From NCBI RefSeq assembly GCF_002368415.1, contig NZ_AP018292.1:186001-250000 (forward strand): a stretch of 64,000 nucleotides of DNA. Direction: 5' to 3'. This document shows, piece after piece, positions 17,648 through 54,448 of the stretch. Within the stretch, counting starts at the first letter, position 1. Each line of letters begins with the position of its first letter. This stretch comes from Calothrix sp. NIES-4105 (GTDB taxonomy: Bacteria; Cyanobacteriota; Cyanobacteriia; Cyanobacteriales; Nostocaceae). A program made the position numbers and the translations under genes. The notes beneath the pieces were generated by a model. The model was not told where the DNA came from. It saw nothing but the letters and a program-made list of their open reading frames with translations, and made no database searches.

Positions 17648-17846
17648 AAAATTCCCTATTAAAATTTGGCGAAAAGTTATAGTTACTCTTTCCAACTAAT
17701 GTTTAGCAGCATTAGACGTATTGTTGTGAGCATTATTAGTTGTGAACGTATATTTTTAGATTCTGCTTCGTTACAGATTGCAGACATGTTGTGCTGCATA
17801 GTTGACACTATTAATTATTTTGTAATATCTATAAGGCTTGTATTTT

Positions 17847-20800: not shown

Positions 20801-20924
20801 TAAGGGCAGGCGCCTCTCGGATGAAGATATTCAACACTACCAACGTATTGTTGTTGCACTCAAAGAAACTATTGCACTTATGAAGAAAATTGATGATGCT
20901 ATCCCTGGTTTCCCAATCCAATAG
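17847..20924 (+). CDS. Type ISP-like adenine-N6 DNA methyltransferase with specificity domain
   Basis: 1,025 residues from ATG 17847 (AAGG ten bases upstream; a TTG at 17838 adds three residues). A helical coupling region leads into MRERRGVYYTPEPVVSYMVR, SAM motif I ILEPACGTGSFLLYIF near residue 395, and the catalytic NPPY (VIGNPPYSYDS) near 525. The C-terminus (VPEEVWNFYVGGYQVCQKWL, then HYQRIVVALKETI) matches the Type_ISP_C specificity domain. In true type ISP enzymes an N-terminal nuclease-helicase is fused; here it is absent and a helicase is coded 47 bases downstream. From 18280 to 20690 there is no GGCGCC, unlike the helicase gene. Confidence 0.9.
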   Translation: MTFTKENLRALATGNEKNRIAVLKELLGYPVAQRDPQSGNFWYLRPGDDEDEALETCPIAVGFLEELNDATDTQIKQLLTREKKQEIYGHYSSREDIVNQPVMYLLLPTKGGIGRIPLVLPTEGGLRQRQIQTFEWNDNQLIGRLEKLRQGKLPIAERAVCLVPQVDWVFYEPVKTASELARALAEAARRIEQAIPKVYRAEGKDGYLHSLLKSFQKELLPTLQLTSDNEKDYSFADIYAQTIAYGLFTARVFSYIKDNKNSKNKETDFNRQDAWKQLPETNPLLRQLFRDVSEQSTDELGEELIAAIADIFSILRAAKMNFILSDFQMKMNQEDIVIRFYEDFLAAYKPQMRERRGVYYTPEPVVSYMVRSVDTLLVEKFGKPLGLADPEVEILEPACGTGSFLLYIFRLIYERFHNIDYQPLFKSKVGNISWSKYVENHLLTRIYGFELLMAPYAIAHLKLSLFLEETGYTFESDKRLEIILSNTLDAPERKSEVLLGEYISEESDRAVVIKRDQPVMLVIGNPPYSYDSENTGEWITSLTRDYYQVDGQSLGEKNPKGLQDDYVKFIRFAQWKIEQTGQGILSFITNHGFLDNPTFKGMRQQLINAFDSLFIYDLHGNTKKKEKQPNGLLDSNVFDIQQGNSITFGIKSDEKINYHCHLWGSKEEKYKFLINNTISSTSWIKIQPKSPFYLFIPQNTTLLPEYNNYWKIQDIFPINSMGITTGNDEHFVAFNDEELQIKCQDITQSTLADYRPFDKRSLLYNHHLERARTKFMQHFIQGDNLALVTVRRPRNQKFDNFFVTDKPTDKCIISSLDNAQLFALYIYPNPNNPKELEETVRSNISCDFFNAITSKLGYTPIPEAIFYYIYAIFHSPTYRARYAEFLKIDFPCVPLTSNNELFCQLAEYGEELVALHLMKSPELDSHITKFVESKGNCAVDPGHPKYSNGAVTINKLGDKFTGVPEEVWNFYVGGYQVCQKWLKDRKGRRLSDEDIQHYQRIVVALKETIALMKKIDDAIPGFPIQ

Positions 20925-20971
20925 ACACTAGTTTAAGTACAAATTACATTGTAAGAGGTAAAATAAGTATC

Positions 20972-23900
20972 ATGATTGAACAAGCCATACAAGATATAAT
21001 ACGCAAACAACGCCCCTATTACTTACCTCAAGGTAGCCCTATCAAGGGTGTTGATAATCAGTATTGGCTTGTTTTTAAACATCGTGATGCCGATAGCTTA
21101 CTTAAAAACATTATCTCTTTTATTAGAAGAGATGAAAGACACGCTACCTATAAATTACTGCGTATTGACCCAAAAAATGCCAAGGTTTTTGAATATACTC
21201 CTATCAAACAAAATGACATACCCGGCGCCACCACATTACGAACGAGTTCACTGCATATAATTGAAACATTTCTTAATCAAGAAAGTGTTACCGAAGAAAA
21301 ATCATTAATTGCAGGCAGTTTTAAAGAAATTCAAATAGACGGGCGCCGCTTCAGTTTACCGGATGAACTAGAAGAATATCAAAATTTTGTTTGCTCAATC
21401 TTACAACGCACTCAATTTTATCGACGTTCAACAGCGTACTTCGATAACGGTGTCCTTAAACTCTACGAAGAACCCATACAAAATATAGTTTCCACAGAAG
21501 GTAAGATACGCTTACTTATGGACTGGCAGGGGTTTACCAAGGATGCTGACATTCAGGAACTTGCTAAACTGCATGACCCTCAATACCGTGCTGAATACGC
21601 GCGTCGTACCTTAAGTGAATTTTTACAAGGTTTAGAAGACGGCGCCTTCACAGGTACACAAATTATGGCGGAGCTTGTAAGATTAAGCTTGCTGGAAATT
21701 AAACTTGTTAAAATGCGAGGTGGTCGAGGTATTTATCACAAAAAAACTGGGATATTTACAGATGGACTAGACAACCATATTCTCCACGAAGGGTCAGATA
21801 ACTTTACGCGCGCGGCAAAATCCATAAATTCTGAGGGTGTGGTATTCTCATTCTCATGGAATTCTAAAATAGATAGCGATGATATAGCTAAAGCCATCCG
21901 TCAATTCGATAGCGAGTGGGAACGCGAAGATTTATCATTCGACCTTACCCAAGAATTTTTAGAACAGGTGCTTGCCGAGAAGGAACGGCGCCAGCAACTC
22001 AACGAACCTGTTATCGAAAGTATCTCACCTCCAGAGCTACCACCAGGTGAAACTACAACAGTAGAAATTACGGGTAAAAATCTTGATAAAGTCGAGGATA
22101 TTATCATCCCTGACGATACTTTAGTAACTGTAACAATCGAAAGCAAAGAACCTGAAAGTATTACTGCTACTGTAAACGTTGACCCTGATCACCCACCAAC
22201 AACGTTAACCGAATTCCAAATTACCACCGAGGACGGTACTTATATAACCTCCCCCACGGCGCCACCTACTGTTACTCCAACTTTAGAGATTTCCGAATAT
22301 CCAGAAATCGCTGGTTTTAAACAAGCTGTTGAAATTATCTTGAAAGGCAGCTATGGTAAGCCAAACGATTTTCTATATTGGTTAGCACAACAGCGTCCGC
22401 ATCAGTTTCAGGTAGAAAGCAGCGATATTTTAGACAAGCTGGTTTACGATGGTGTCTTGTTTGAACACCAAAAATCAGGCGCCCAGCATTGTTTACGAGT
22501 AATGCAAGATTTTGGTGTCGCTGTATGTGCCGATTCGGTAGGTTTAGGAAAATCTAGACTCGCAGCAACTGTAGCTCGATTATACGGAGAACAAAATAAC
22601 GGCGCCAAAGTTGCTATCATCGCCGCGAAGAAGTTGCATGATAACTGGGAACGAGAAATGGCTGAGTTAGGTTTTTCTAGTAATAATTATGAACTATACA
22701 ATAAAAACTTGATGAGTCGTAAGGGAAGTAATTTTCTTACAGAGTTTAATCGTTATGGTGGCGCCGATATTATCATCCTTGATGAAGCACACGAGGGTAT
22801 CCGTAATTATAGAAACCGTATTCATCGAACTTGCTTACAAATTCAAGAGCAAGATAGAAAGTCTGGTAGACAGCGTTATTTCTTACTGTTGACTGCTACT
22901 CCTTGGAATAACCGCCGTGAGGATATCTATAATATATTGTCTCCCTTCCTCAACCGTCCCGAAGGTTTTAATCAGTTAAATTTACCTGCTGAATTAGTAA
23001 CTTGGTTTCAAAGTCGGGAAATAGGAGTAGAAAATTTTACAGATAATACTGAGATATTTAGGCGTGTTTACAAAGAGCTTTTCCTTCAACGTACCCGTCA
23101 AATGCTGCGGGAAGCTACACCAGATATGAATTTATACGCTAAACGTGTTGCCGAATGGCTACCAGTACCATTTGAAGACAGTACCGAAGAAGCATTAGAG
23201 CAAATATTTACCCAATTTGAAGACAGTTTATTTATTCCTTTTGCTGACCCAATTCGTTATTTAAGAGAAAACGTTGAACAGCGGTCATTACTTCGTAACC
23301 AACGGCGCCTGTTCCTCCAGCGCGCGGAGTCATCAATGTACGCGCTACAACGTACTATCAAGGCTTTTGGTAATAGAATTCGTGAATTACAAAACCTTTT
23401 GCAGCAAGTAACTCCTGATGCTGATGGCTTAAAACAGTTTCTTCTCATCCACTATAAATTTGAATCACTTCCTAAAAATCAACCTACATTGTTTGAGCAA
23501 GACGACCGGGAAGCATGGGACGAAGATTATGAGGAAGAAGAGGAAGACGAAAACGACGAAGAGCAAGAAGGGCAACAACGGCGCCAGCAGTTACGAACCT
23601 TGATTAATAATTACACCGACGCACTTCGAGATAACCCTGAGCAAGCACAACATATATATAATCGTATCCTCTCTGACTGTGAGGGTGATTTACAGCAGTT
23701 AGACCAAGTTCAAAATTTACTTGCTGGTGAGTTTATACGCGACCACAAGCGTGAAGAAGTTACCAACAAAGTAAAAGAACTTATAGCTCTTGGCCATAAG
23801 GTGCTATTAATTTCTACCTTCTCTGATACGGTTATTGACTATTACAACTACATGCGTCGAGATGGAGTTATCGCCGCCAAAGGTATTGGTATGGCAATCG

Positions 23901-25210
23901 GTAACACTAAAAACTACTACCCTAATAATTCAACTACTGCTATTACTGTTGCTCCTCATAATATCTACAAGGGAAGTAATCATCGTACTGGAGTTAAGCG
24001 CGCGCAGGTTTTCCGATTATTTGCACCAGTCGCTAGCTGTAAAAAGCCTGTAGACCGTCCAACTAGCAGCGAAGAAATATCTGTACTAATTGGTTCTGAA
24101 ACTCTTTCGGTTGGTCAAAATCTTCAAGATGCTGATTATATAATTAACATAGACTTACCGTGGAACCCGATGATTCTCGAACAACGTATTGGTAGAATCG
24201 ACCGTCCCAAAGCTCATAAGTGTGAAAATATTTACATTTACTACGCGAACAGTGAAAGTCAGTTATTACGTCAAGCTTCCCGGCTGGCTAATTTAAACAA
24301 GAAACTCGTCGGAGAACTCGCAAACGAGGAAGGACAAATTCCTACCATCACTGATGTTAAAAATTTAGGCGCCTCAATTTATGGGGATACATTATTTGAC
24401 TCTGAGGTTCTGCCTGGTTACATCGACTTTATCAACAGTTTGGTCAAAGCGCGCAAATTGGAACAGGGTAATTTACAGGAGGAGGTTTACAAGAAGCAAG
24501 AAACTAGTACTAGTGTATATAGTCAAACTGAGATTTTATATAGTGAGGAGCTAAGTAAATTAGTCAAAGAGTTGGGTGATGATTATCAAGCTAACCCGAT
24601 AACATTAGGGCGCCGGACTGGTAATAATGAACCGACTGGTTTAGTAGCAATGACAGTTAAATATTATGGACCCAATGGCGAAGCTATTGATAACCAAACT
24701 CAAACTGTCTTCTGGAATGACCAAACTGGGGATAAAGATGGGTATGGTACAGCAATTGCCACAGCTTCTAAAACACCAGAAGCAGGAGATATTTTCTCTA
24801 CTAAGTATTTACTCGATAATGCTAATAATTTATACCAGTTATTGGTTGGGCATAAACGAGAGTTACAAAGTGGGTTGCAACAAGAAGATAGTAATGAAGG
24901 TATCAACACAACATCTGAGCGTATAACTAGGGTACAAAATCGTATTCAAAAAATGACTGTTTTACCCAATGGTTTGGATAAGAAAGCTGTCCGAGAAACA
25001 CTCAAGAAATTAGGTCAGTGGAAAGCAACACATAAAAGTGTTCAAAAATTGCTTCGCGATTTTACTGAAGGCGCCAAGGCTAAACTTGATGATGAAAGTT
25101 TCTTGCGGCAGTTGGTTGAAGAGACTGATGAGCTTAACCTTCTTGCTGGGGATGGAATAAAAGCAACTAGTTTGACAGTTTCGCTTGCTGCTGTTTTGCT
25201 GCGCGCGTGA
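20972..25210 (+). CDS. PLD-family nuclease / TIG-like / SNF2 helicase fusion
   Basis: 1,412 residues. Residues about 130-290 form a phospholipase D-type nuclease with IYHKKTGIFTD (His near 256) and HEGSDNFTRAA. Residues about 345-430 look like an IPT/TIG immunoglobulin-type domain (PVIESISPPELPPGETTTVE, ITGKNLDKV). The helicase follows: Walker A SVGLGKS near 522, DEAH near 603, LTATPWNN near 640 and the C-terminal lobe LSVGQNLQDADYIINIDLPW with QRIGRIDRP near 1040-1080. An acidic patch lies near 850-865. It is probably the translocase/nuclease arm of a restriction-like defence operon with the upstream methyltransferase. Rich in GGCGCC and GCGCGC. Confidence 0.85.
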   Translation: MIEQAIQDIIRKQRPYYLPQGSPIKGVDNQYWLVFKHRDADSLLKNIISFIRRDERHATYKLLRIDPKNAKVFEYTPIKQNDIPGATTLRTSSLHIIETFLNQESVTEEKSLIAGSFKEIQIDGRRFSLPDELEEYQNFVCSILQRTQFYRRSTAYFDNGVLKLYEEPIQNIVSTEGKIRLLMDWQGFTKDADIQELAKLHDPQYRAEYARRTLSEFLQGLEDGAFTGTQIMAELVRLSLLEIKLVKMRGGRGIYHKKTGIFTDGLDNHILHEGSDNFTRAAKSINSEGVVFSFSWNSKIDSDDIAKAIRQFDSEWEREDLSFDLTQEFLEQVLAEKERRQQLNEPVIESISPPELPPGETTTVEITGKNLDKVEDIIIPDDTLVTVTIESKEPESITATVNVDPDHPPTTLTEFQITTEDGTYITSPTAPPTVTPTLEISEYPEIAGFKQAVEIILKGSYGKPNDFLYWLAQQRPHQFQVESSDILDKLVYDGVLFEHQKSGAQHCLRVMQDFGVAVCADSVGLGKSRLAATVARLYGEQNNGAKVAIIAAKKLHDNWEREMAELGFSSNNYELYNKNLMSRKGSNFLTEFNRYGGADIIILDEAHEGIRNYRNRIHRTCLQIQEQDRKSGRQRYFLLLTATPWNNRREDIYNILSPFLNRPEGFNQLNLPAELVTWFQSREIGVENFTDNTEIFRRVYKELFLQRTRQMLREATPDMNLYAKRVAEWLPVPFEDSTEEALEQIFTQFEDSLFIPFADPIRYLRENVEQRSLLRNQRRLFLQRAESSMYALQRTIKAFGNRIRELQNLLQQVTPDADGLKQFLLIHYKFESLPKNQPTLFEQDDREAWDEDYEEEEEDENDEEQEGQQRRQQLRTLINNYTDALRDNPEQAQHIYNRILSDCEGDLQQLDQVQNLLAGEFIRDHKREEVTNKVKELIALGHKVLLISTFSDTVIDYYNYMRRDGVIAAKGIGMAIGNTKNYYPNNSTTAITVAPHNIYKGSNHRTGVKRAQVFRLFAPVASCKKPVDRPTSSEEISVLIGSETLSVGQNLQDADYIINIDLPWNPMILEQRIGRIDRPKAHKCENIYIYYANSESQLLRQASRLANLNKKLVGELANEEGQIPTITDVKNLGASIYGDTLFDSEVLPGYIDFINSLVKARKLEQGNLQEEVYKKQETSTSVYSQTEILYSEELSKLVKELGDDYQANPITLGRRTGNNEPTGLVAMTVKYYGPNGEAIDNQTQTVFWNDQTGDKDGYGTAIATASKTPEAGDIFSTKYLLDNANNLYQLLVGHKRELQSGLQQEDSNEGINTTSERITRVQNRIQKMTVLPNGLDKKAVRETLKKLGQWKATHKSVQKLLRDFTEGAKAKLDDESFLRQLVEETDELNLLAGDGIKATSLTVSLAAVLLRA

Positions 25211-31243: not shown

Positions 31244-31606
31244 ATGAAAAGCCAAACAGAAGCTGATATTGTAATCACTTCGTCTGATGAGAAATTAAAC
31301 AGTGCCGAATCTATTTCAATCAAAAATGCACAATGCATAGTCATTTCCGTTAACGATGAAGTAGACGGCGCCGAACCTGAAAGCGATAAAGAAACCGAAT
31401 CAATTGCACAAGAGACTGCTGGAGCTATAGCGCGCAGTAAATCCTTAATTCTAGCAATCCTAATATTTGTGCTAGGGATTATGAGTATACAGATAGTGGC
31501 TAAATCTAGTTGCGGCGCCTCGTTCTCTTTAAAGTTGGTGCCTCCCGAAATCGAATTGAATAGCGGCGCCTGTGATATTCCAACAGACCAATCTGGAACT
31601 AACTAG
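31244..31606 (+). CDS. Single-pass membrane protein with acidic cytoplasmic part
   Basis: 120 residues. Residues 1-65 are hydrophilic and acidic (NDEVDGAEPESDKETESIAQ). One membrane helix spans about 66-87 (SLILAILIFVLGIMSIQIVA). A short tail with two Cys follows (SSCGASFSLKLVPPEIELNS). No family is recognised. A decayed copy of its second half plus downstream DNA lies at 40733-41130, so this locus was duplicated. The hairpin array starts 80 bases downstream. Confidence 0.55.
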   Translation: MKSQTEADIVITSSDEKLNSAESISIKNAQCIVISVNDEVDGAEPESDKETESIAQETAGAIARSKSLILAILIFVLGIMSIQIVAKSSCGASFSLKLVPPEIELNSGACDIPTDQSGTN

Positions 31607-35942: not shown

Positions 35943-38900
35943 TTAGACCTCCCATTTATCTGGCCAGTCCCACCATGAGCCATTGTAGTATTCTAAAAAG
36001 TTTGGATTCCATTTACTGTTTTCTTCCTTCGGTTTCAATATTGCTTCAAAACCATCATGTCTTTGCCAAGGTTTATCATTACCATTGATTCGATTTAGAG
36101 CAAAAAGCTTACTAACTTCTCCAGCCTGACCTCTGTTGTTTTTCTCTAGCATTTGAGTGAAAACATCTACAACATCACCATGAGCATTATAACCAGGTAT
36201 GGAAGGTCTTATAGGAAACTCTATTCTAAAAGACTCATCAGCAGTGTTAGCACGGTCAGCAGAACCAAGTGTACTGCCGTAAAATCCCCATGACCAGTCA
36301 GAATATTTTTTGAAATCGACACTCCAGTCATCATATTTACCTAAAGTCTGCGCTCCTGGGTCTAGGGCAATTAACTTTGATATACCCCCTAATCCTTTGG
36401 AGATTTCATAAGACACATAAGAACCGAAGCTATGACCAACAAGGTTAATATTGTTTGATGATATTCCCCATCCACTCAATTTTTCAGCAGCAAATTTTCC
36501 TACAGTTGTAATCCAAGAAGCTGCATCATCAAACTGTAGTCCAGTATCGGCAGCTTGACTCCAATCAAGTGCAAAAACTTGATCACCATTTTCGTAGCCA
36601 TCTATCGCGCTAGCTAAAAGAGCAACAGTAGACGGACTATTGTTCCAACCGTGAGTTACTACCCATGTTTTTTTGTTACCAATATTAGCTGTACCATTAA
36701 TCAGTTCGATTCCTGCTCGACGTTCTTGGTTTTCTTGAGTGTATCCTATGCTTCCCCAGGTATACTTGACTGAAATATTTAGGTCATAGTTAGTGTTATT
36801 ACTACTAGTTTTTGGAAAAACTCGGATGTAGTAGTTTCCAGCATCCAGATATTTATCTATAATTGCTCCAGGAAAACCAGGACCGTGCAATGGTATACTT
36901 TCAACAATCTCACCATTCTCTTTAATAAGTTGAACTTGAGCATTATTACTTAAACCATTTAAGTTAATGAGCAAGCCACTCCGCCAGGGCAAATTAAATT
37001 TATAATAATCGTTGGTATCGGCATTACCTACCCAATCTTTATACTTATAAGTTTGTTTATCTTCTAAAGTGCCAAGTACACGTGCCTGACTTTGGCTATT
37101 TCCTGCCCAATCTTGAGGAATGTTAGTTCCAGAATTATTACTTCCGTTATTACTGCCACCTCCAGAATTTCCAGTCCCAGGATTTCCAGGCACACTATCT
37201 CTAGGAACTATAACAAAGTGATCAGGTAACTTATTTCCAGAGATAGTACGAGTGTTGTACATCTTGCCAAGCCAGTTTGATTCTGATATCAGAAGCGAAC
37301 CGTCTGGGTTAATTTGCTCAACTACTGCAACGTGACCCAATCTACCTGCACCACCACGATTAGGCTCCCATACTGCGATTGCACCAACTTGGGCTTCATT
37401 TGTCACTGTAATTCCAGCTTTGCGGGCTTGGTCATCCCATTGATAAGCATTGCCAAGCATTTTATCTAGCGCGCTTGCTCGATAACCCAATTCTTTCAAC
37501 CGACCATTCGCATACCAAGTACAGTTAGGCCCACCATATCCAGATAACCAGAAAGGATTATTTTTTGTGTAGAACGACGAGTTTAAATTGACCGGAATTC
37601 CAATAGTTGACCCAGATGCGCCGTTAGGATTTGGTGATGGCAATGATGGTATTACAGGTTTACCCGTTCCCGACTGATACCCAAACGGTAACCGTAATAA
37701 TTGCCCAACTTGTAAATTACGTGTATCCCAATCACTAAGTGGATTATTATCTTGCTTCAATATATCTCGCCAGCGCGCGGCACTTCCCATTTCTCTTAAT
37801 GCAATTCCCGAAGGCGTATCACCAGGACGCACGTAGTAATTTCTATAATCAGTAGTAGGAAGATTAGACGCTGGAGTATTGGTAATAACGTTACTGCGAA
37901 GAATACTCCAGAAGTTTGTTGCCAATGTAGCGATATAACTAGCTTTGTCTAAACCATTAACAATCCGCCTAGCATTATAGAAATCCTGGCGCCCGCCACT
38001 GATATATTTACCTAGCCCAACTCCTGTAAATGAGCCATCACGCATTCCTTGTACAAGAATTTTAGCCGCAATTACTGGGTCAGCCGCTAAATCTGGATTA
38101 TTGATTAAATCTATACCCAGGCGCCGTGACCAGTTAGCATAATTATTCCGACCAGTGATTTGCACAAAACCGCGTCCTTTATAGCGTCTGCCATCTCCAG
38201 GTTGGGTGTTACCTAAATCTCTTCTACCTTCATATGCATCCCCAGAAGCAAGTTCATACATAAACTTACCTAAAAGAGATTCTTGCTGTGCTGTAGCTAG
38301 AATGTATGCTATTTGGGCTGGGTCAGTAATTCCACTTCTTTGGGCTTCAGCTATGATGAGAGGAATAGAATTTTGAGCATAAGAACGAATAGATGAAGGA
38401 ACAACATTGAGGATTTGTCCCAAGTTTGTATTTAAACTTCCACCAAGATTGCTTCCACCATTATTAGTAGTGTTTGATGACAGTGGTAAATATACGGTTT
38501 GATTTGGTTGAATTCTCCGAGCTTCATCTTCGGTAAATCTAGAACCGTTAGATTTTTTAATTTCAGTCCAGCGGTAAGGGCTTCCTAAATAAGTAGCAGC
38601 AATGTCCCACAGTGTATCACCTGGTCGAATTGTATATGCTCGATTTACTGCTCTTTCAGCAGCGATGACCTCACCCTCACCGCTCCAATCACGAACTTGT
38701 TCTACTGGAGCAACAATATAAGCTTGTGGTGTTGTATTTTTCGCGACAGCAACAGCAGCTTCAATATTCAACAAACCAGAACCAGTTTCCATATCCCAAC
38801 CAGGCTCTGCTAAATCTGTTGCTGAACTTTCTAAAATTTCAATTACTTGTCGATAACTTAGGTTCGGGTTTTCTCCCCAGATACGAGAAGCGGCGCCTGT

Positions 38901-40583
38901 CACATAACTAGTAGCAACAGATGTTCCTGCCATTGTTCCTAGACCATCGCCTACTGTAGACAGTATGGGATTTTCAATTGTCCCACCAGGCGCCAAAATG
39001 TTCAAACCGTGACCGTAACTAGAATAATCTGCTCTTAAAAGTCCATCCGCTGCTCCAACTGTAAAAATATTGTCGAACTCTTGGGAAGATTGCCCTAATG
39101 CTGACATTACACCGCCATCATTACCTGCTGCCACTACAATTACAACCTCTTGTTGATGAGCGTATTCCAATGCAATACGTTCATCTGGTGTAAACTCATA
39201 ACGTGTTGTTACCGTACCATCAGCATTATTTATTTGTGTTAAATCTAAAGCGAGGTTTACAACTATATTTTTCTGTCCTAACTGTTTCGCTGCGTCTATA
39301 GAATTTATTAATCCTTCCGCCCATTTTCCTGAACCAATCGCACGCTCTATATATGTTGGAGCTTTGTTATTAATACCAGTAATAATTCCTGCGAGGTGCG
39401 TTCCATGTTCACTACCCTCACCTTGACTCAAAAGAGGATTATTATCATTATCAACGTAGTCTCTTCCTAAAACCAGGCGCCTATAATCCAAGTAAGGATT
39501 ATTAGCTGCTACACCACTATCAATCAAAAGAATCGCAGGTTGGTTTGAATCAATTACATTATTAGCAAATATCTGGACTGGAGCATTGAAGATAATATCG
39601 CCTTGTGTTTTAATCGAACCGACAATCTTCGAGGCGCCGTTTACTGTGAAGCTACCCGACGCGAGAAAATCCGTGCGCGCGTCTAATTCATTATTAATGG
39701 TTATATTACCATTAGCAAATACATTAATTGAATCTGAGGGTTTCTCTGTGACTGTTTTACCGCTAAAAATAACACTTCCGTTTTTGGTAGCTAACAAGTT
39801 CTCGCCACTGAAGGTAGCTGTTTGATTAAAACTAATTGAGCCAGAAGCAAATACAGAAAGGTTGGCAGATTTTATTCCACTTAAGTTGATATTGCCATTT
39901 TTAACAATGAGAGTAACATTATCTAGTTCATGGAAACTACCATTGAAATTAATATCACCGTTCTCTACCGTAATTATCGTATTACGGAGCAGTGATGATG
40001 ATGGTAGATTCAAACCGCCACCAACAACGTTAACTATAGATAATTCCTTATCGTTGCTCTTAAATGCATCTGTTACATCCGTGGCAGTATTTAGTGGTTT
40101 TAGCGAAGGGTTAAATACTAGCTCTTGTCTTGACGGCACCTGTGATAAACCTGAAGAAAGTAGTTCATCGTAAGGAACATTAACAGGTAATAGTTCTGAT
40201 GCACGTGAATACTGGATACCTGTAAGCTTGTCAGTTATGGATACTGTACCATTGGCGCCTATAGTCAGCGCTCCGGGTAAAGATGATAGTGTCGGCGCCC
40301 CATTAAATGTAACTCCTTGATTGGCATAGATAAAAGTATCATCCCAAGGTTTACTTAACTCGCCAACGAAGTTGCTACTTGAGTTATCTGTAAATTTTGA
40401 ATTTGTCGCAATATTTGTATTGTCTATGAACGAGTTATAACTACTGGCGCCGAGTACACCGCTGCTTATATTAAATGGATTTTTATGTAAGTCAGGTTCA
40501 AAGTTGAGTTTTAAAGTGTTCTGTAAAGTATCAAGCGCGTTGCTATTCCCATTAGAAGAGTTCGCTGTGAAGTCAACTGGCAT
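35943..40583 (-). CDS. Multi-enzyme exoprotein: subtilisin, LysM, GH19-like, LysM, CHAP, PPC, lipase
   Basis: 1,546 residues in one frame. Residues 175-340 are Gly/Asn-rich strand repeats (NGNINLSG, NGNITINN). The S8 protease has Asp355 (ILLIDSG), His393 (EHGTHLAG), Asn488 and Ser555 (AGTSVATS). LysM domains span 649-699 and 916-966. Between them lies a GH19/lysozyme-like domain (740-895, AQQESLLG, YKGRGFVQITGRNNY). The CHAP domain (1008-1125) has Cys1021 and His1084. PPC spans 1160-1272. A lipase-like fold (1285-1500) has GHSFGS Ser1385, Asp1408 (ALDPG) and His1468. It should cut protein, peptidoglycan (twice) and ester lipids of other cells. No Sec signal is seen, so export route is open. 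Confidence 0.9.
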   Translation of the reverse strand: MPVDFTANSSNGNSNALDTLQNTLKLNFEPDLHKNPFNISSGVLGASSYNSFIDNTNIATNSKFTDNSSSNFVGELSKPWDDTFIYANQGVTFNGAPTLSSLPGALTIGANGTVSITDKLTGIQYSRASELLPVNVPYDELLSSGLSQVPSRQELVFNPSLKPLNTATDVTDAFKSNDKELSIVNVVGGGLNLPSSSLLRNTIITVENGDINFNGSFHELDNVTLIVKNGNINLSGIKSANLSVFASGSISFNQTATFSGENLLATKNGSVIFSGKTVTEKPSDSINVFANGNITINNELDARTDFLASGSFTVNGASKIVGSIKTQGDIIFNAPVQIFANNVIDSNQPAILLIDSGVAANNPYLDYRRLVLGRDYVDNDNNPLLSQGEGSEHGTHLAGIITGINNKAPTYIERAIGSGKWAEGLINSIDAAKQLGQKNIVVNLALDLTQINNADGTVTTRYEFTPDERIALEYAHQQEVVIVVAAGNDGGVMSALGQSSQEFDNIFTVGAADGLLRADYSSYGHGLNILAPGGTIENPILSTVGDGLGTMAGTSVATSYVTGAASRIWGENPNLSYRQVIEILESSATDLAEPGWDMETGSGLLNIEAAVAVAKNTTPQAYIVAPVEQVRDWSGEGEVIAAERAVNRAYTIRPGDTLWDIAATYLGSPYRWTEIKKSNGSRFTEDEARRIQPNQTVYLPLSSNTTNNGGSNLGGSLNTNLGQILNVVPSSIRSYAQNSIPLIIAEAQRSGITDPAQIAYILATAQQESLLGKFMYELASGDAYEGRRDLGNTQPGDGRRYKGRGFVQITGRNNYANWSRRLGIDLINNPDLAADPVIAAKILVQGMRDGSFTGVGLGKYISGGRQDFYNARRIVNGLDKASYIATLATNFWSILRSNVITNTPASNLPTTDYRNYYVRPGDTPSGIALREMGSAARWRDILKQDNNPLSDWDTRNLQVGQLLRLPFGYQSGTGKPVIPSLPSPNPNGASGSTIGIPVNLNSSFYTKNNPFWLSGYGGPNCTWYANGRLKELGYRASALDKMLGNAYQWDDQARKAGITVTNEAQVGAIAVWEPNRGGAGRLGHVAVVEQINPDGSLLISESNWLGKMYNTRTISGNKLPDHFVIVPRDSVPGNPGTGNSGGGSNNGSNNSGTNIPQDWAGNSQSQARVLGTLEDKQTYKYKDWVGNADTNDYYKFNLPWRSGLLINLNGLSNNAQVQLIKENGEIVESIPLHGPGFPGAIIDKYLDAGNYYIRVFPKTSSNNTNYDLNISVKYTWGSIGYTQENQERRAGIELINGTANIGNKKTWVVTHGWNNSPSTVALLASAIDGYENGDQVFALDWSQAADTGLQFDDAASWITTVGKFAAEKLSGWGISSNNINLVGHSFGSYVSYEISKGLGGISKLIALDPGAQTLGKYDDWSVDFKKYSDWSWGFYGSTLGSADRANTADESFRIEFPIRPSIPGYNAHGDVVDVFTQMLEKNNRGQAGEVSKLFALNRINGNDKPWQRHDGFEAILKPKEENSKWNPNFLEYYNGSWWDWPDKWEV

Positions 40584-40732: not shown

Positions 40733-40975
40733 AAACGGCGCCAAACCTGCAAGCGACAAGAAACCGAATTGATTGCATTCATAGACTGCCGGAGCTATCG
40801 CGCGCAGTAAATTGTTGATTCTAGCTATCCTAATATTTCTGCGCTTGGATTATGAGTATATAGATAGTCGCGCGTCTGGTTGCGGCGCCTCATTGTCTTT
40901 AAAGTTGGCGCCTCCCGAACTAGAGTTGAACAGCGGCGCCTGTAATATCCCAACAGACAAATCTGGAACTAACTA
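40733..40975 (+). pseudogene. Decayed duplicate of the 31244 membrane-protein gene
   Basis: The DNA runs parallel to 31366-31606: GCGCGCAGTAAAT, TCCTAATATTT, TTGCGGCGCCTC, AGTTGGCGCCTCCCGA, and TCTGGAACTAACTAGTATCT follow in the same order. Stops and frame changes prevent translation. The similarity continues past the stop through a leader and one hairpin copy to about 41130. Where the intact copy has GGTGCC or GGCACC, this copy has GGCGCC. Confidence 0.85.
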
Positions 40976-41057
40976 GTATCTTGATCTAAGGAGGCGCCTG
41001 TACTAATAATCAGATCAACATGTACATGCTCGCGCTGTTCCAGGCGCCATTGAGAGC

Positions 41058-47780: not shown

Positions 47781-48677
47781 TTAAGCCTTGAAATACAATT
47801 CTAAACCATTATCTTCTGCATAAACAACTTTCTTCTCTCCTCGGAGTCTAGCAAGTTTTGGTTCTCCAAACACAATTTCTTTAATTTGAAGAGGTGGATA
47901 TACAACACATTCGTAATAGTCATCTGTATCATTACATTTAACAAAACAGACCCACGCGCTAAGATCATCTAGTATGATATCTCTTCTATATTTTCCACAT
48001 TGAAAAGTCCAAGATAATCCATATTTATCAGCTGAACTTTTAGACTGTGCTTTTACCGATAACTCAATTTCGTTAACTTTTAAATCAGCATCCCAACTTT
48101 TATTTTTACCGTGATAAATATTATAGTCAGGTTTTGTTACATTATCTGTAAATCGCTGAAAAGCGGCATAAACAGCTTCTTCTCCAATTTTACCAATAAA
48201 GTAATCTTTCCAAACTTTGATTCTATTAAATTGTTTGCTATCTTTATAATTCACTGTTCCAATAACTTGGTCTGTAAAAATTTTTATTTTTTCAAAAACA
48301 GTAGGAGTTGGTTTAAATAAATAAGGTTGTTCAAAAAAGCGTAGATTTTTAACAGTACATTGCTCTGGAGAAATCTTATGCAAGGGAACAGGGGGTGTTT
48401 CTTGAGGATGATTTAGCAATAGTTCTTCGGCAACAACTTTTAAGTTTGGATTTGGATTTGAAATACATGCACCATGAATTAAGTCTTCAATCCATCCCTC
48501 AGCATCTGCTGTTTCTATTAAATAAAAAATAGTAATTGATAAATTATCTTTTCTAACAATTGCGTCTAAATTTTTTTCTAGCTCATACGATAACATCATT
48601 TTCAATGATTCTTGAGTAGGAAAAGCACTAATTAAAGCTTGTTGTAATTTTTTACGTTTTTGACCAGATAAAATCAT
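47781..48677 (-). CDS. EAD1 effector protein with C-terminal nuclease-like domain
   Basis: 298 residues. Residues 1-90 match effector-associated domain 1: LSGQKRKKLQQALISAFPTQ, MMLSYELEKNLDAI, then the AEGWIEDLIHGA helix. EAD1 is a death-like adaptor that pairs effectors with NTPase hubs in cyanobacterial conflict systems. Residues about 150-298 look like a restriction endonuclease-type fold: GKIGEEAVYAAF (Glu166), WDADLKVNEIELSVKAQ (Asp198, Lys209) and an aromatic-rich core. The usual Glu before the Lys is Ser here, so nuclease activity is not certain. No EAD1 partner is coded within the window. No GGCGCC in the gene. Confidence 0.7.
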   Translation of the reverse strand: MILSGQKRKKLQQALISAFPTQESLKMMLSYELEKNLDAIVRKDNLSITIFYLIETADAEGWIEDLIHGACISNPNPNLKVVAEELLLNHPQETPPVPLHKISPEQCTVKNLRFFEQPYLFKPTPTVFEKIKIFTDQVIGTVNYKDSKQFNRIKVWKDYFIGKIGEEAVYAAFQRFTDNVTKPDYNIYHGKNKSWDADLKVNEIELSVKAQSKSSADKYGLSWTFQCGKYRRDIILDDLSAWVCFVKCNDTDDYYECVVYPPLQIKEIVFGEPKLARLRGEKKVVYAEDNGLELYFKA

Positions 48678-49441: not shown

Positions 49442-52400
49442 ATGGAAATGTTACCAGTGATTGATTCAAGCTATGTATATCTAGATTTGGAAGTCAGTGC
49501 GTTATCGAACATATACTGTCTAGGTTTTGTGTCACCCGATATGGCACAAGACTTTAGTAGCGATAACTTGACTCAAGCAGCAGATAAACTTACTCATCTG
49601 AAAAATAGCGGTTTGAGTGTTTGTGGTCATAACTTTCGACGCTTCGACCATCCACATTTAATAAAACAGGCGCCTGAATTATCTGACTGGAATGTTATCG
49701 ATACACTAGAACTATCAATTCTTGCATTCCCTCTCCAACATAAACATAAGCTCAATAAAGAATATAAGCAAAGCGAATATAGCTCAAATTGCCCTCTAGA
49801 AGACGCACGTGCAACTAGATTATTACTGCACGTGCAAATTGAAGCACTACAAAATAAACCACAGTCATTACGACATCTATTAACTTGGTTACTTGGTTGT
49901 GGATACGAAAAAGCTTCTTGCGCGTATAAGCAGCTATTTTGTGATGTTTTGGGCTGGAATATGGCGCCAGTAAGGATTGAAAAACTACCAACCGAGATGC
50001 TACTTGGAGTCAATCAATCCTACTTACACCAATTATTGCTGAGTCCACAAACCTATAATTTTGATACCAAACTATGTGTAGCAGCACTATTGGTTTGGAA
50101 TTATGAAACCAACCTAAAAAATGAAAGAGAAGCATTTTCTAACTGGCTTTCAAATTTGGCGCCGTTCCAAGACGTACTCAACAATTTATTTCCGCTAGTA
50201 AATAGTGAGTTTGCAATTGAGTCTCACCTGGAACATTTTGGTATTTCCAGTTTTCGACCATTACAAGAGAAAGCTGTTAAATCAATAGTCAATAGGGAAT
50301 GTCCATTAATAATGATGCCCACTGGTGGTGGTAAGTCATTATGCTACCAACTACCTGCTTTGATGTTCCACCATAGACAAAAAGCTTTAACTGTTGTTAT
50401 ATCCCCATTACAAGCATTGATGGCTGACCAAGTAGCAGACTTGGAAGAAGCTGGTTTGTTTTTCTCTACCTACATAAATGGTAATTTAACCGCACAGGAA
50501 CGGCGCCTGCGTTTAGAGGAATTACGTTCAGGAAACAAGGGTTTACTATATATAAGTTCTGAACAATTACGCTCAATGAGTATCCGCGCGCTACTAGAAC
50601 AGCGTCCTCCAGTGTTATGGGTACTCGACGAAGTACACTGTATTAGTCAATGGGGACATGATTTTAGACCTGACTATTGCTATGTTCCTAAATTTATTAA
50701 AGAATTATACGAACGGCGCCAGTTACCAACACCAATGTTAGCTTTATTAACAGCAACTGCAACAGTTAGTGTTGTAGAAGATATTAAAAAACTATTTGGT
50801 GAATACAATCTAAACATTAGTACTACAATTGATGGTGAAGCTACCCGTTCTAACTTGACATTTGAAGTTGTTCCAACAGTAGGTAATAAAGAAAAAACCC
50901 TTATTGATAAAGTTAAAGAAGCATTGAATTATGGTGGTAGCACTCTTGTATATACAACTACTCGTAAGAATGCTGAAAAGCTAGCTAAACTGTTGAATCA
51001 AAGTAATATTAATGCCAAATATTACCACGGGAAATTATCAACATACGAGAAATACGAAGTCCTACAAGCGTTTAAATCGGGTGAATTAAACGTAGTTGTA
51101 GCGACTTGTGCTTTTGGGATGGGTATTAATAGAAAAGATGTGCGCGCGGTTATTCATCATTCAATGAGTTCCAACCTAGAAGGTTATGTTCAGGAAGCTG
51201 GGCGCGCGGGTCGTGATGGTCAACCTTCTTATTGCACCTTACTTTATGACCCAAAAGATGCGGATACAATATTTTTCCTACAAAGTTTAAATCAACTTAG
51301 CGAGCAAGATTTAAAAAATACTTTTATATCAACCAGGTACTTGCGGAATAAAATACATAAAGGCGCCTCTGAAGAATGGTTTTGGGTGACAGCTTCGGAA
51401 ATTATCTCCGAGGGGGATTTTGACGAAGAGTTTGATGTAGCGCCCGAACAACAAGATACTAAAATTAAAGTTGCCTTACATCACTTAGAAAAATTTGGTT
51501 TACTAGAGCGCGCGGAGAATTTGTCAACTTTTATCCAGTTTGAATTGCTACACAAAACTTACGATGAGTCCCGTGAGCATTTTGAGAAATATAGTAGAAC
51601 GCAAAATTTACCTCAGTCAGAAATAAAACTGTTTGAGGGGTTAATTTTAGCAATGCATATGGCTAAAACCTATTTCGGGCAAACAAACGAGCATTTCCCA
51701 ATTGATAGACTAAGTGATGAGTCAGGTATTAGTACTAAAGAACTGAGTTCAAGAATCCGAGAGTTGAAGAAAGCTGGTGTTTGTTCAGTTGAGATACCTA
51801 TTGCGTTGATGATAACCAAAGGTGTTACAGGAGACGCGCGCAATTTACACGATAGTAAACGTGAATTAGAAAAACAGCTATTAGAAGTACTAATAGAAAT
51901 GTTGGGAGAGGCGCCTGAACTTCAAGTCAACCTACGTGGTTTAGCTTCTCGTTTAGACCCAGATAACTCTAAAAAACTTAGAGCGTCAGTACTGATGGAT
52001 ATTTTAGAAGGTTGGGCTAACCAGAAATGGATTAAGTTAAACCACGTTACGCGCGATGTTGTGAAACTCCGAGATATCAAAGTTGACGAAAACTTAGGGC
52101 GCCATCAAATCTTATCTGACGATGTACTCAAAATACTTTATACAGCACTTGGAGATAAAAAAGGTGCCAGATTACCGTTAAAGTACGAATTAGAACGTTT
52201 AGCAACCGAAGTAACAGAGAGTACACAGCTAGTTTGGGAAAGTAAAGAATTAGAGCAAATACTCTTGTGGTTGCATCAAAGAAAAATTATTCGTTTAAGC
52301 GAAGGTCTTAACTTATTCCAACATTCATTGAAAATTCGCGTTATTAAAGGCGCCAGTATAAGCAGAGTAAGTAGACGTTACCCAGATGTAAAAACTCGTT

Positions 52401-54448
52401 ACGATGAGCAAACAAGACGTACCCATTACATGTTGAAGTATGGGGAAGTACCACCCACGATGCGCCTACAATATATAGAAGATTATTTTGGCAAAGTCCA
52501 CGAAGAGTTTACCCAATCTCATCAACTACCAACTGGTGAGGAAACTATTCGCCCTGTAATACCATCTGATTACGAGAGTATTATAGAAACACTCAACGAA
52601 TCCCAGAAGGAAATTGTTTTAGCAGATAATCCAGCACTAGCTGTAATCGCTGGTCCAGGTTCAGGTAAAACTAGAACTATTGTTCATCGTATTGCTTATC
52701 TAGTAAAAGTAAAACGAGTTGAACCGCAGAGTATATTAGTATTAGCTTATAACCGTAACGCCATTACAGAAATACGAGTTCGGTTGCAGAAATTAATTGG
52801 AAACCTTGCCGCGCGCATTCGTGTTTTTACCTTCCACGGTTTATCTTTAGCTTTGTTAGGTCGTACCCTTGGGGAAAGTACCAGAAGTCAAGAGTTTGAT
52901 TTTGATAAGTTAATAACTGAAGCATGTTCGCTATTGGAGAAAGGCGAGGAATCAGAGGAAGAGTCAGACGATACCCAGCAACGACGAATTCAACTACTTG
53001 GTAAGCTCGAACATATATTTGTCGATGAGTACCAAGATGTTAGTGAGACTGAATATCGTTTGATTAAGTTAATAGCAGGATTAAATGATTCTGAAGACAC
53101 CGAACGTTCAGTACAAATAAATCTTTGTGTTATTGGCGATGATGACCAAAATATCTATGCTTTTAGAGGCACTGATACAAGATATATAATTCAATTTACT
53201 GATGAATATAAAGCAAAACGCTTATTACTAACCGAAAATTATCGTTCCACTGAATCAATTATTGAAGCTGCTAATAAATTAATTAGCAACAATAGAGAGC
53301 GTTGTAAACTTAATGAAGATGAACAAGTACGGATAGATAACGGGCGCCTCGGTTATAAAGGTTTTCCACTTGAAGCTTACACATTCGGTAGTATTGAAAG
53401 TCAAGCAACATGGATACAGCAGCGTATATCTTCCCGTATCGAACAAGGCACCTCATTAAAAGATATAGCTGTACTAGCTAGACACTGGGGTAGTTTAGAT
53501 GCTATCCGATTACTCTTGGAAAGGGCAGGTGTTCCAACTTGTACTTTGAGAAAAGATGGTATCAAGCTTGTTAGAAATCAAGTTACCTGCGAACTTATCA
53601 AGCAGTTGAAAACTAAACGTCATCAAGTCCTGGCACCAGACAAATCGGTTTTAAGCTGGTTTGAAGCTTGTTTTACTAAATGGGGGCGCCTAATTGGCGA
53701 ACCAACGGTACAAGTACTTCTCAAAATCGCGCGTGATATAGATATTGAGCGAGGATATGGTATTGAAGAAGAGGCACTACCTATTAGTGCCGCTGATATC
53801 CTCACTTCTATATTTGAATTTAATGAAACTTTTGAAGCTGCAAGAGACGAAGATGCTGTACTCGTAACCACTTGTCACGGCGCCAAAGGTTTAGAGTTCC
53901 AAAACGTTATATTACTCGGAGATGGTTTTAATACAAAAGCTGAAGAAATTGAGTCTGAGCGAAGATTATTTTACGTAGCGATGACGCGCGCAAAGCAAGA
54001 ACTGACTATATGTACTACTAAGCAATCGCAATTTGTACATGAGACAGGCGCGGTTCCTGAACGACTTACTGTAAAGACTGATTCGTTACCAGAGCTAATG
54101 TTCTACTTTGATTTGACTCCTGGGGATATTTTTCTAAGCAATTACAACACGAAGAAAAATCAGCAAGTCATTGTTAACTTGACCGAAGGCGCCGAATTGT
54201 TGATGAAAGTAAACTCATATAAAAACGGTTGGGATATTTTGACTGCGGATGGTCAATGTATTGGTGCCTTATCTAAAAAAGCAAATGCGGAGTTATCTAA
54301 GAAAGGGTGTGTACCAGGTCAGTTTGAATTTATTTTAGGTGAGGTAACTGTTAAAAGTGTATATCGTCATATGAGCATAGATGATGTATCTGGAGAAATT
54401 AACGAAGATTGGTTTGTTGTTATTCCTCAAATACGGGTTTGTCGGTAA
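49442..54448 (+). CDS. Exonuclease-RecQ-UvrD helicase fusion
   Basis: 1,668 residues. Residues 10-135 look like a DEDD exonuclease: YVYLDLEVSALSN (Asp15, Glu17), CGHNFRRFDHPHLI and NCPLEDARATRLLL; the last box lacks the His of DEDDh enzymes. RecQ-type helicase: FRPLQEKAVKSIV and MPTGGGKSLCYQLP near 272-300, LDEVHCISQWGHDFRPDY near 394 and EAGRAGRDGQPS near 585, without a zinc-binding RQC. UvrD-type helicase: ESQKEIVL and AGPGSGKTRTIVHRI near 1055-1085, VDEYQDVSETEYR near 1190, GDDDQNIYAFRG near 1230 and FYVAMTRAKQEL near 1505. It is a complete two-motor DNA-processing machine, probably repair or defence. Confidence 0.9.
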   Translation: MEMLPVIDSSYVYLDLEVSALSNIYCLGFVSPDMAQDFSSDNLTQAADKLTHLKNSGLSVCGHNFRRFDHPHLIKQAPELSDWNVIDTLELSILAFPLQHKHKLNKEYKQSEYSSNCPLEDARATRLLLHVQIEALQNKPQSLRHLLTWLLGCGYEKASCAYKQLFCDVLGWNMAPVRIEKLPTEMLLGVNQSYLHQLLLSPQTYNFDTKLCVAALLVWNYETNLKNEREAFSNWLSNLAPFQDVLNNLFPLVNSEFAIESHLEHFGISSFRPLQEKAVKSIVNRECPLIMMPTGGGKSLCYQLPALMFHHRQKALTVVISPLQALMADQVADLEEAGLFFSTYINGNLTAQERRLRLEELRSGNKGLLYISSEQLRSMSIRALLEQRPPVLWVLDEVHCISQWGHDFRPDYCYVPKFIKELYERRQLPTPMLALLTATATVSVVEDIKKLFGEYNLNISTTIDGEATRSNLTFEVVPTVGNKEKTLIDKVKEALNYGGSTLVYTTTRKNAEKLAKLLNQSNINAKYYHGKLSTYEKYEVLQAFKSGELNVVVATCAFGMGINRKDVRAVIHHSMSSNLEGYVQEAGRAGRDGQPSYCTLLYDPKDADTIFFLQSLNQLSEQDLKNTFISTRYLRNKIHKGASEEWFWVTASEIISEGDFDEEFDVAPEQQDTKIKVALHHLEKFGLLERAENLSTFIQFELLHKTYDESREHFEKYSRTQNLPQSEIKLFEGLILAMHMAKTYFGQTNEHFPIDRLSDESGISTKELSSRIRELKKAGVCSVEIPIALMITKGVTGDARNLHDSKRELEKQLLEVLIEMLGEAPELQVNLRGLASRLDPDNSKKLRASVLMDILEGWANQKWIKLNHVTRDVVKLRDIKVDENLGRHQILSDDVLKILYTALGDKKGARLPLKYELERLATEVTESTQLVWESKELEQILLWLHQRKIIRLSEGLNLFQHSLKIRVIKGASISRVSRRYPDVKTRYDEQTRRTHYMLKYGEVPPTMRLQYIEDYFGKVHEEFTQSHQLPTGEETIRPVIPSDYESIIETLNESQKEIVLADNPALAVIAGPGSGKTRTIVHRIAYLVKVKRVEPQSILVLAYNRNAITEIRVRLQKLIGNLAARIRVFTFHGLSLALLGRTLGESTRSQEFDFDKLITEACSLLEKGEESEEESDDTQQRRIQLLGKLEHIFVDEYQDVSETEYRLIKLIAGLNDSEDTERSVQINLCVIGDDDQNIYAFRGTDTRYIIQFTDEYKAKRLLLTENYRSTESIIEAANKLISNNRERCKLNEDEQVRIDNGRLGYKGFPLEAYTFGSIESQATWIQQRISSRIEQGTSLKDIAVLARHWGSLDAIRLLLERAGVPTCTLRKDGIKLVRNQVTCELIKQLKTKRHQVLAPDKSVLSWFEACFTKWGRLIGEPTVQVLLKIARDIDIERGYGIEEEALPISAADILTSIFEFNETFEAARDEDAVLVTTCHGAKGLEFQNVILLGDGFNTKAEEIESERRLFYVAMTRAKQELTICTTKQSQFVHETGAVPERLTVKTDSLPELMFYFDLTPGDIFLSNYNTKKNQQVIVNLTEGAELLMKVNSYKNGWDILTADGQCIGALSKKANAELSKKGCVPGQFEFILGEVTVKSVYRHMSIDDVSGEINEDWFVVIPQIRVCR

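What the first reader, a model, noticed from the sequence alone, without database searches (positions are those of the whole stretch)
35943..40583. One protein with protease, two cell-wall hydrolases, wall-binding domains and a lipase
Complete-looking catalytic residues are present for four different enzymes: S8 protease (Asp355, His393, Ser555), GH19-like (Glu768), CHAP (Cys1021, His1084) and lipase (Ser1385, Asp1408, His1468), joined by two LysM and a PPC domain. This would attack proteins, glycan strands, peptide cross-links and lipids at once, like a one-molecule predation or competition weapon. No Sec signal or type I secretion repeat is evident, and the order of domains is not one I know.
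Basis: partly seen in the sequence, partly recalled or inferred. Interest (0 to 1): 0.75.

Follow-up and report, generated by a model that had tools for sequence, protein, structure and literature searches.

The report
Cyanobacterial four-enzyme envelope-lytic protein
A large cyanobacterial protein carries a protease, two cell-wall-cutting enzymes and a lipase on one chain, and looks like a secreted protein built from swappable parts for breaking open other microbes, although its target and activity are untested.

Summary
The frame at 35943-40583 (-) is one intact 1546-aa ORF, and all nine named catalytic residues sit at the stated positions and align with solved enzymes or relatives. It lies on a 366-kb contig of a 12-Mb genome, inferred to be cyanobacterial.

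The protein is a mosaic. (1) Its N-terminal beta-solenoid module also opens giant RHS-type polymorphic-toxin-like proteins of the same genome; one is followed, 1.3 kb on, by a PpiC-HlyB-HlyD exporter cassette, and this recurs in another genus. (2) Its subtilase belongs to a subfamily found in 17 of 292 sampled genomes, in long frames only. (3) The tails are exchangeable: 17 of 31 relatives carry a peptidoglycan hydrolase (CHAP, M23, Amidase_3), one also Ntox44; another has a lipase. No relative found has the window's full combination.

I read it as a leaderless, exported, multi-enzyme envelope-lytic effector, with the subtilase probably a maturation or release protease. I do not file it as a polymorphic toxin: no same-strand immunity gene follows it. 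Export route, target and activity are inferred. A side result: the subtilase family co-occurs with an M50-HlyD gene pair, which this genome lacks.

The parts
35943..40583 (-). whole ORF, 1546 aa, ATG start
   Evidence: stop-to-stop frame 1550 aa
40407..40583 (-). aa 1-59: Ser/Asn-rich leaderless N-end, no signal peptide by hydropathy
   Evidence: very low model confidence here
39549..40406 (-). aa 60-345: N-terminal module (Nt), beta-solenoid at about aa 181-340; also opens the 7552-aa and 5255-aa RHS giants of the same genome
   Evidence: weak DUF4097 match
38775..39539 (-). aa 349-603: S8 subtilase, D355/H393/S555; lacks 10 aa after HGTHLAGI that relatives have
38484..38636 (-). aa 650-700: LysM 1
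37869..38420 (-). aa 722-905: GH19, phage-endolysin-like, E768
37686..37844 (-). aa 914-966: LysM 2 (not passed by Pfam; 38% identical to LysM 1)
37275..37541 (-). aa 1015-1103: CHAP amidase/endopeptidase, C1021/H1084
36816..37013 (-). aa 1191-1256: PPC-like domain (below Pfam cutoff; BLAST relatives cover about 1154-1275)
35988..36716 (-). aa 1290-1532: lipase of the pancreatic-lipase/PLA1 type, S1385/D1408/H1468

Best explanation
It is a leaderless exported exoprotein assembled from exchangeable modules, made to break down the envelope of other microbes. Shown by sequence: an N-terminal module shared with RHS giants, an intact subtilase of a subfamily found here only in long frames, and a tail with wall-binding LysM, GH19 (glycan strands), CHAP (peptide or amide bonds) and PPC-lipase (acyl lipids). 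Inferred: (1) it leaves the cell by a type I-like exporter such as the PpiC-HlyB-HlyD cassettes on contigs C4 and C5 of the same genome; (2) the Nt beta-solenoid holds or guides it at the surface; (3) the subtilase cuts in cis or in trans to mature or release the lytic tail; (4) LysM domains dock the tail on exposed peptidoglycan, where GH19 and CHAP open the sacculus and the lipase attacks membrane lipids. It serves antagonism or scavenging; the producer's own outer membrane would shield its sacculus, so no dedicated immunity gene would be needed.
For: Catalytic residues in place. S8 subfamily (E 1e-50 or better) in 17 of 292 genomes of the phylum, 34 matches including the query, all in open frames of 1094 aa or more. 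Of 31 relatives whose tails were scanned, 17 carry CHAP, M23 or Amidase_3 at or above the Pfam cutoff and 20 carry LysM, SH3_3, LGFP or RicinB; L045 pairs CHAP with Ntox44, L117 has a lipase. (With L109 and L112 the first figure is 17 of 33.) P0002, on an Allocoleopsis franciscana plasmid, is DUF4114-S8-LysM-LysM-CHAP. Nt is shared with giants that bear RHS cores and differing C-ends. PpiC-HlyB-HlyD follows the Nt-RHS giant on C5 at 1.3 kb and the Nt giant of G320 at 2.8 kb. No signal peptide-like or transmembrane stretch.
Against: No PpiC, HlyB, HlyD or M50 homologue was found in the window or in three other 20-kb stretches of its contig, nor is the cassette near its S8 relatives, so export is by analogy through one shared module. 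The Nt-RHS giant on C1 has no PpiC copy near it. The HlyB C39-like domain seems to lack its catalytic Cys (read by eye), and such exporters usually read C-terminal signals (recalled). No activity, target or expression data. 14 of the 31 relatives show no wall hydrolase above cutoff, among them L111, L052, L118, L119 and L121, and a divergent one has GH5 cellulase plus CBM6 (L054), which suits scavenging as well as warfare.
Confidence: 0.55

Rival explanations
1. A true polymorphic toxin: Nt is the trafficking module, the subtilase the built-in processing peptidase, and the tail a kin-directed toxin with a cognate immunity protein.
For: Exchangeable tails behind a constant head, one with Ntox44; Nt shared with RHS giants; Zhang et al. 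2012 (PMC3482391, passages read) lists subtilisin among processing proteases of polymorphic toxins.
Against: No same-strand ORF of 60 aa or more starts within 300 nt downstream of the window gene; the 70-aa and 78-aa ORFs in the downstream gap are on the other strand and were not tested further. Of 30 relatives with enough sequence, 21 have some such downstream ORF, but no gene family recurs in that position in the clusters (several small-ORF clusters there, besides PIN and PemK, were left unidentified). Here the tail is several enzymes, not one short C-terminal toxin.
Confidence: 0.2
2. A scavenging or saprolytic exoenzyme that digests dead cells, sheath or biofilm, with no role in killing.
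For: No same-strand immunity gene; divergent S8 member with GH5 cellulase and CBM6 (L054); others with second S8, P-domain or beta-propeller tails.
Against: Peptidoglycan hydrolases with wall-binding domains are common in the family (17 of 31), one tail has Ntox44, and the N-module is shared with RHS proteins.
Confidence: 0.2
3. Self wall remodelling, such as filament fragmentation or controlled lysis of the producer's own cells.
For: Multicellular cyanobacteria remodel septal walls (recalled); peptidoglycan hydrolases fit.
Against: No high-identity S8 match is listed for the six other genomes of its genus and only 17 of 292 genomes have the family, so not a core developmental gene; the lipase does not fit.
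Confidence: 0.08
4. An assembly or fusion artefact, or a decayed gene.
For: S8 lacks 10 residues present in 23 of 23 relatives matched, which could be damage.
Against: 1546 codons open, even GC, all nine catalytic residues kept; at the gap the sequence aligns without a break to engineered calcium-free subtilisin, which is an active enzyme (activity recalled).
Confidence: 0.03

Closest known systems
S8-LysM-LysM-CHAP protein WP_015186244.1, plasmid pMIC7113.03 of Allocoleopsis franciscana PCC 7113
   Same: S8 core, LysM pair, CHAP; best plasmid match (43.9% over the aligned pieces)
   Different: DUF4114 N-terminus instead of Nt; no GH19, PPC or lipase found
Calothrix elsteri CCALA 953 protein, NZ_NTFS01000017 (L063)
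   Same: same Nt (65% in BLAST) followed by S8 (57%) and LysM; the closest relative from the N-end
   Different: insert of about 141 aa inside S8; C-end without GH19, CHAP or lipase hits
RHS polymorphic-toxin-like giants of the same genome (L055/L066, L057/L058)
   Same: Nt module at the N-terminus
   Different: Ig repeats and RHS core instead of subtilase and wall hydrolases
Polymorphic toxins with subtilisin processing domain (Zhang et al. 2012, PMC3482391, passages read)
   Same: constant N-part, built-in peptidase, variable effector tail
   Different: no same-strand immunity gene following; multi-enzyme envelope-lytic tail
Phage endolysins with GH19 and solved CHAP enzymes
   Same: catalytic domains
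   Different: here fused to protease and lipase in one protein
Engineered calcium-free subtilisin BPN' (1suc, 7am3)
   Same: loop after the catalytic-His helix missing; aligned without a gap there (7am3)
   Different: natural, in a multidomain protein; activity untested

Membership tests
Peptidase S8 (subtilase) | Asp/His/Ser triad and oxyanion Asn in subtilase fold | tested here: met
   D355/H393/N488/S555; the top Foldseek rows are subtilisins, although the S8 part of the model has low confidence
Peptidase S8 (subtilase) | calcium site A loop (typical, not universal; recalled) | tested here: not met
   10-aa gap relative to 23 of 23 relatives matched by the pattern
GH19 | catalytic Glu and GH19 profile | tested here: met
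   29.8 bits vs cutoff 25.5, profile match partial; E768 aligned to phage endolysin Glu. Second catalytic acid not assigned
CHAP | Cys/His pair and CHAP profile | tested here: met
Pancreatic-lipase type (PF00151) | profile above gathering score and Ser-Asp-His triad | tested here: inconclusive
   23.6 bits, below cutoff 27; triad present and conserved; relative L117 passes with 32.4 bits
Polymorphic toxin | conserved N-part with exchangeable C-terminal effector domains | tested here: met
   constant S8 head with changing tails, though the N-end itself comes in more than one kind
Polymorphic toxin | adjacent cognate immunity gene | tested here: not met
   none of 60 aa or more, same strand, within 300 nt downstream; only short or opposite-strand ORFs in the flanks
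Polymorphic toxin | toxicity neutralised by immunity protein | not testable with these tools
   bench work
Type I secretion substrate (RTX type) | C-terminal RTX nonapeptide repeats | tested here: not met
   no RTX hit
Type I secretion substrate (other) | linked ABC exporter and adaptor genes | tested here: not met
   no PpiC, HlyB or HlyD homologue in the window; cassette only beside giants, some sharing Nt
Sec/Tat exported protein | N-terminal signal peptide | tested here: not met
   hydropathy only; no signal-peptide predictor available

The most novel reading that the evidence does not exclude
The window protein belongs to an undescribed class of cyanobacterial leaderless lytic weapons: a constant subtilase head with exchangeable envelope-degrading tails, fed to dedicated exporters by interchangeable N-terminal tags. 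Nt would serve a PpiC-HlyB-HlyD type I machine shared with RHS giants, and the FILEPI[LY]TPSG motif would serve an M50-HlyD machine. The subtilase, in the window protein naturally free of its calcium loop, would release the tail at the surface.
Probability: 0.3. Interest if true: 0.72.

Novelty: new variant of a known kind. Interest (0 to 1): 0.5.

Why it matters
If it works as inferred, one polypeptide attacks glycan, cross-links and lipids at once, and the family would give cyanobacteria a protein-based lytic arsenal outside the usual needle, CDI or T6SS routes. It also makes an export question testable: what carries leaderless proteins of more than 1500 aa out of cyanobacteria. The natural loss of the subtilisin calcium loop, matching a classic protein-engineering deletion, can be checked on one purified domain.

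Tried and rejected
Assembly fusion or pseudogene: disfavoured. Sec or RTX export: no support. Immunity gene on the same strand just downstream: none. Linkage of the PpiC-HlyB-HlyD cassette to S8-family loci: not found (only a 29% ABC match in L065, a 20% PpiC match in L111, a 24% HlyD match in L116), nor in the window and three further stretches of its contig. M50-HlyD as exporter of the window protein: rejected, because the genome has no M50 match. The idea that FILEP proteins always go with M50 failed in G029, which has a FALEP-type protein (L047) but no M50; conversely several M50-positive genomes have S8 proteins without the motif (L048, L051, L052, L114, L115, L118, L119, L121; L051, L052 and L119 have uncertain starts). 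Structure of the C-terminal half: not run, since the rule of the structure tool left too few relatives (A2 has 2 rows). The N-terminal model has mean pLDDT 56; outside S8 only about 181-320 reaches block means of 70-87. The 50 Foldseek rows shown, of 164 with E 0.001 or better, are subtilases matching the S8 part, so the solenoid was not placed. A search of the window's flanks against known plasmids gave only short matches in 5 records. Pfam found no family in the C-ends of four giants (L058, L066; L149, L150). S8 control outside the subfamily: only two proteins (L042 with DUF5942; L054, a divergent relative) were scanned, too few for a statistic. Nine paper searches showed no description of this family among the titles and abstract starts listed; several printed only the top 12-20 of longer lists, and (subtilase, CHAP domain, LysM, cyanobacterium; three of four) returned none. 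Only passages of PMC3482391 and PMC2605481 were read.

Rows dropped before counts: the 31 scanned tails (26 of the 33 non-query matches, plus L063, L064, L065, L044, L047) leave out L109 and L112 (scanned: second S8, P-domain, fn3, and in L112 SBBP and SH3; no wall hydrolase) and the five divergent frames L122, L053, L043:16638-20000, G289 and G186:C60, which were not scanned; L054 and P0002 were scanned separately. Some of the 31 are incomplete: L045, L113 and L117 at the N-side, L049:13173 at the C-side, and L065 lies in a broken frame. L104 (M23) and L048 (C39-like) were below cutoff and not counted. In one search, L109/L110 and L112/L113 overlap, so the 8 HlyD loci are 6 genes. In one search, L103 was too short to test.

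Full report
Observation. The ORF at 35943-40583 (-) is intact, 1546 aa, with only four codons of possible upstream extension. Pfam finds S8, LysM, GH19 and CHAP above cutoff, and lipase and PPC below it. They are supported by alignment to solved subtilisins, phage GH19 endolysins and CHAP enzymes, and for the lipase (Ser and Asp only) weakly to phospholipase A1/pancreatic lipase. The second LysM, not passed by Pfam, is 38% identical to the first over 53 aa. Composition is even along the gene and there is no signal peptide-like or transmembrane stretch by hydropathy.

Where it lies. The window is part of contig C3 (365,907 bp) of a 12.04-Mb genome of 8 contigs. The window also carries restriction-modification, helicase, reverse transcriptase and EAD1 genes, which suits a plasmid or island, but C3 was not shown to be circular. 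For the six other genomes of the genus no high-identity S8 match is listed.

The subtilase family. A search of 292 genomes of the phylum with the S8 core (E 1e-50 or better) gave 34 matches, the query included, in 17 genomes, all in open frames of 1094 aa or longer. Pfam scans of 31 relatives show a constant S8 core followed by changing modules: CHAP, M23 or Amidase_3 at or above cutoff in 17 of 31 (L103, L105, L106, L107, L108, L110, L114, L115, L116, L120, L064, L044, L045, L049:1063-6000, L046, L047, L050), or 17 of 33 with L109 and L112; LysM, SH3_3, LGFP or RicinB in 20 of 31. L045 ends in Ntox44. L117 has a lipase 42% identical to the window's. Others show no wall hydrolase (for example L111, L052, L118, L119), or a second S8 with P-domain and in part beta-propeller repeats (L121, L049:13173 and, L109 and L112). 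A divergent member, L054, has GH5 cellulase and CBM6. A named relative is WP_015186244.1 of Allocoleopsis franciscana. GH19 was seen in none of the 31.

No full-length relative was found: no plasmid record of the 507 with a match covers 80% of the query; apart from the query's own locus no match listed for 41 genomes spans the whole; a pattern scan of a collection of 84,980 species genomes, which may leave out the window's own, returned three loci matching aa 1-670, 347-1297 and 58-699. Closest matches per module come from different places: Nt 65-66%, S8 up to 69%, GH19 59-61% in frames of about 395 aa, CHAP 56%, lipase 41-45% in frames of 346-354 aa of the genus. This is what assembly by module exchange would leave.

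The N-terminal module. Residues 60-345 recur at the start of two giant ORFs of the same genome, open frames of 7552 and 5255 aa, made of Ig-like repeats and an RHS region with different C-ends (Pfam RHS_repeat in L057; in L066 and L058 the RHS core was read from the translation). Nt was matched in 11 of 120 relatives searched, the window's genome included. L062 also combines Nt with an RHS repeat. AlphaFold gives a beta-solenoid from about residue 181, with block means of 70-87 up to 320 and 51-55 to 340; the rest of that model is mostly poor.

Export. 1.3 kb downstream of the 7552-aa giant, past one opposite-strand ORF, lie PpiC, a 985-aa HlyB-like ABC protein with cyclic-nucleotide-binding and C39-like regions, and HlyD (the names PpiC, HlyB and HlyD are my reading of the sequences, no family search was run on these three). 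The same trio follows the Nt giant of G320 after 2.8 kb and two ORFs; in G024 it lies near a YD-repeat-rich ORF, with an Nt giant about 25 kb away; on C4 of this genome and in G002 it lies near other large ORFs; in G319, which carries what appears to be the Calothrix elsteri relative, PpiC and the start of HlyB follow ORFs of 1633 and 238 aa at a contig end. The 5255-aa giant on C1 has no PpiC copy near it. This is the basis for inferring a type I route for the window protein; there is no direct linkage.

A second export lead. Many relatives have another N-terminus: DUF4114 in 9 of the 12 whole proteins scanned, and a motif close to FILEPI[LY]TPSG in 16 of 37 frames listed, six of them among those nine. 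Among 33 loci, an HlyD-like ORF lies within 8 kb in 8 (6 distinct genes) and an M50-like ORF in 5; two of each were confirmed by Pfam. In the same 292 genomes an M50 homologue (E 1e-50 or better) occurs in 15 of the 17 S8-positive and 4 of the 275 S8-negative genomes (Fisher p 1e-19, no phylogenetic correction). In the two exceptions, the window's genome and G148, the S8 proteins found lack FILEP; but so do S8 proteins of several M50-positive genomes. A follow-up found no M50 in G024 and G319 (S8 proteins without FILEP) or in G320 and G336 (Nt genomes), but none either in G029, whose L047 has FALEP: one failure.

Subtilase detail. The window's S8 lacks 10 residues directly after the catalytic-His helix that 23 of 23 relatives matched by the pattern keep. 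In subtilisin this is the calcium-site A loop (recalled), and the window sequence aligns there without a gap to an engineered subtilisin that lacks it (7am3; 1suc is titled calcium-independent by design). It may be a natural calcium-independent form or early damage.

Mechanism. I favour export without a Sec leader, surface presentation through Nt, cutting by the subtilase to mature or free the tail, LysM docking on peptidoglycan, and combined cleavage by GH19, CHAP and lipase. The domain anatomy is shown; every functional step is inferred. Without a same-strand immunity gene I do not file it as a polymorphic toxin, although it works like one in layout. Zhang et al. 2012 (PMC3482391, passages) already list subtilisin as a processing peptidase of such toxins, so the principle is known and this is a new variant.

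Noticed in passing
L121:12384-15580; L115:11413-14454; L109:12853-14499; L050:1985-3409: M50-peptidase-like and HlyD-like genes near members of the subtilase family (FILEP type in L109 and L050, an LERLNTPSP variant in L115 and L121), with strong genome-level co-occurrence; a possible undescribed export machine.
   Followed up: partly
L104, L106, L107, L046, L050, L109, L112 and others, within about 75 residues of the N-terminus: Conserved N-terminal motif [ST]FILEPI[LY]TP[SG]G in long subtilase-headed proteins; looks like a sorting tag.
   Followed up: partly
L072:8233-13763; L151:6154-11639; L149:9520-15346; L150:5167-11178: PpiC-HlyB(CNB, C39-like)-HlyD cassettes near giant RHS or other large ORFs in several cyanobacterial genomes.
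   Followed up: partly
window 38775-39539: S8 domain lacks a 10-aa loop found in all 23 relatives matched, like engineered calcium-free subtilisin.
   Followed up: partly
L057/L058: 5255-aa giant combines Ig repeats, a PAP2/haloperoxidase-like domain, FG-GAP-like repeats (by eye) and an RHS core.
   Followed up: no
L045:141-4136: Subtilase-headed protein (N-end near a contig start) with LGFP, CHAP and Ntox44 in one chain.
   Followed up: no
L054:8153-11098: Divergent subtilase fused to GH5 cellulase and CBM6.
   Followed up: no
window 31244-31606 and 40812-40976: Two ORF ends share a near-repeat (GCGASxSLKLxPPExELNSGACxIPTDxSGTN); the second looks like a fragment of the first.
   Followed up: no
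window 17838-25210: Type ISP methyltransferase/specificity protein followed by a SNF2-like helicase: a probable restriction-modification or defence pair.
   Followed up: no
window 47781-48677 and 49442-54448: EAD1 effector-associated protein and a fused DEAD plus UvrD helicase of 1668 aa, near each other; possible defence genes.
   Followed up: no
window 14475-15740: Reverse transcriptase-like ORF; type not determined.
   Followed up: no
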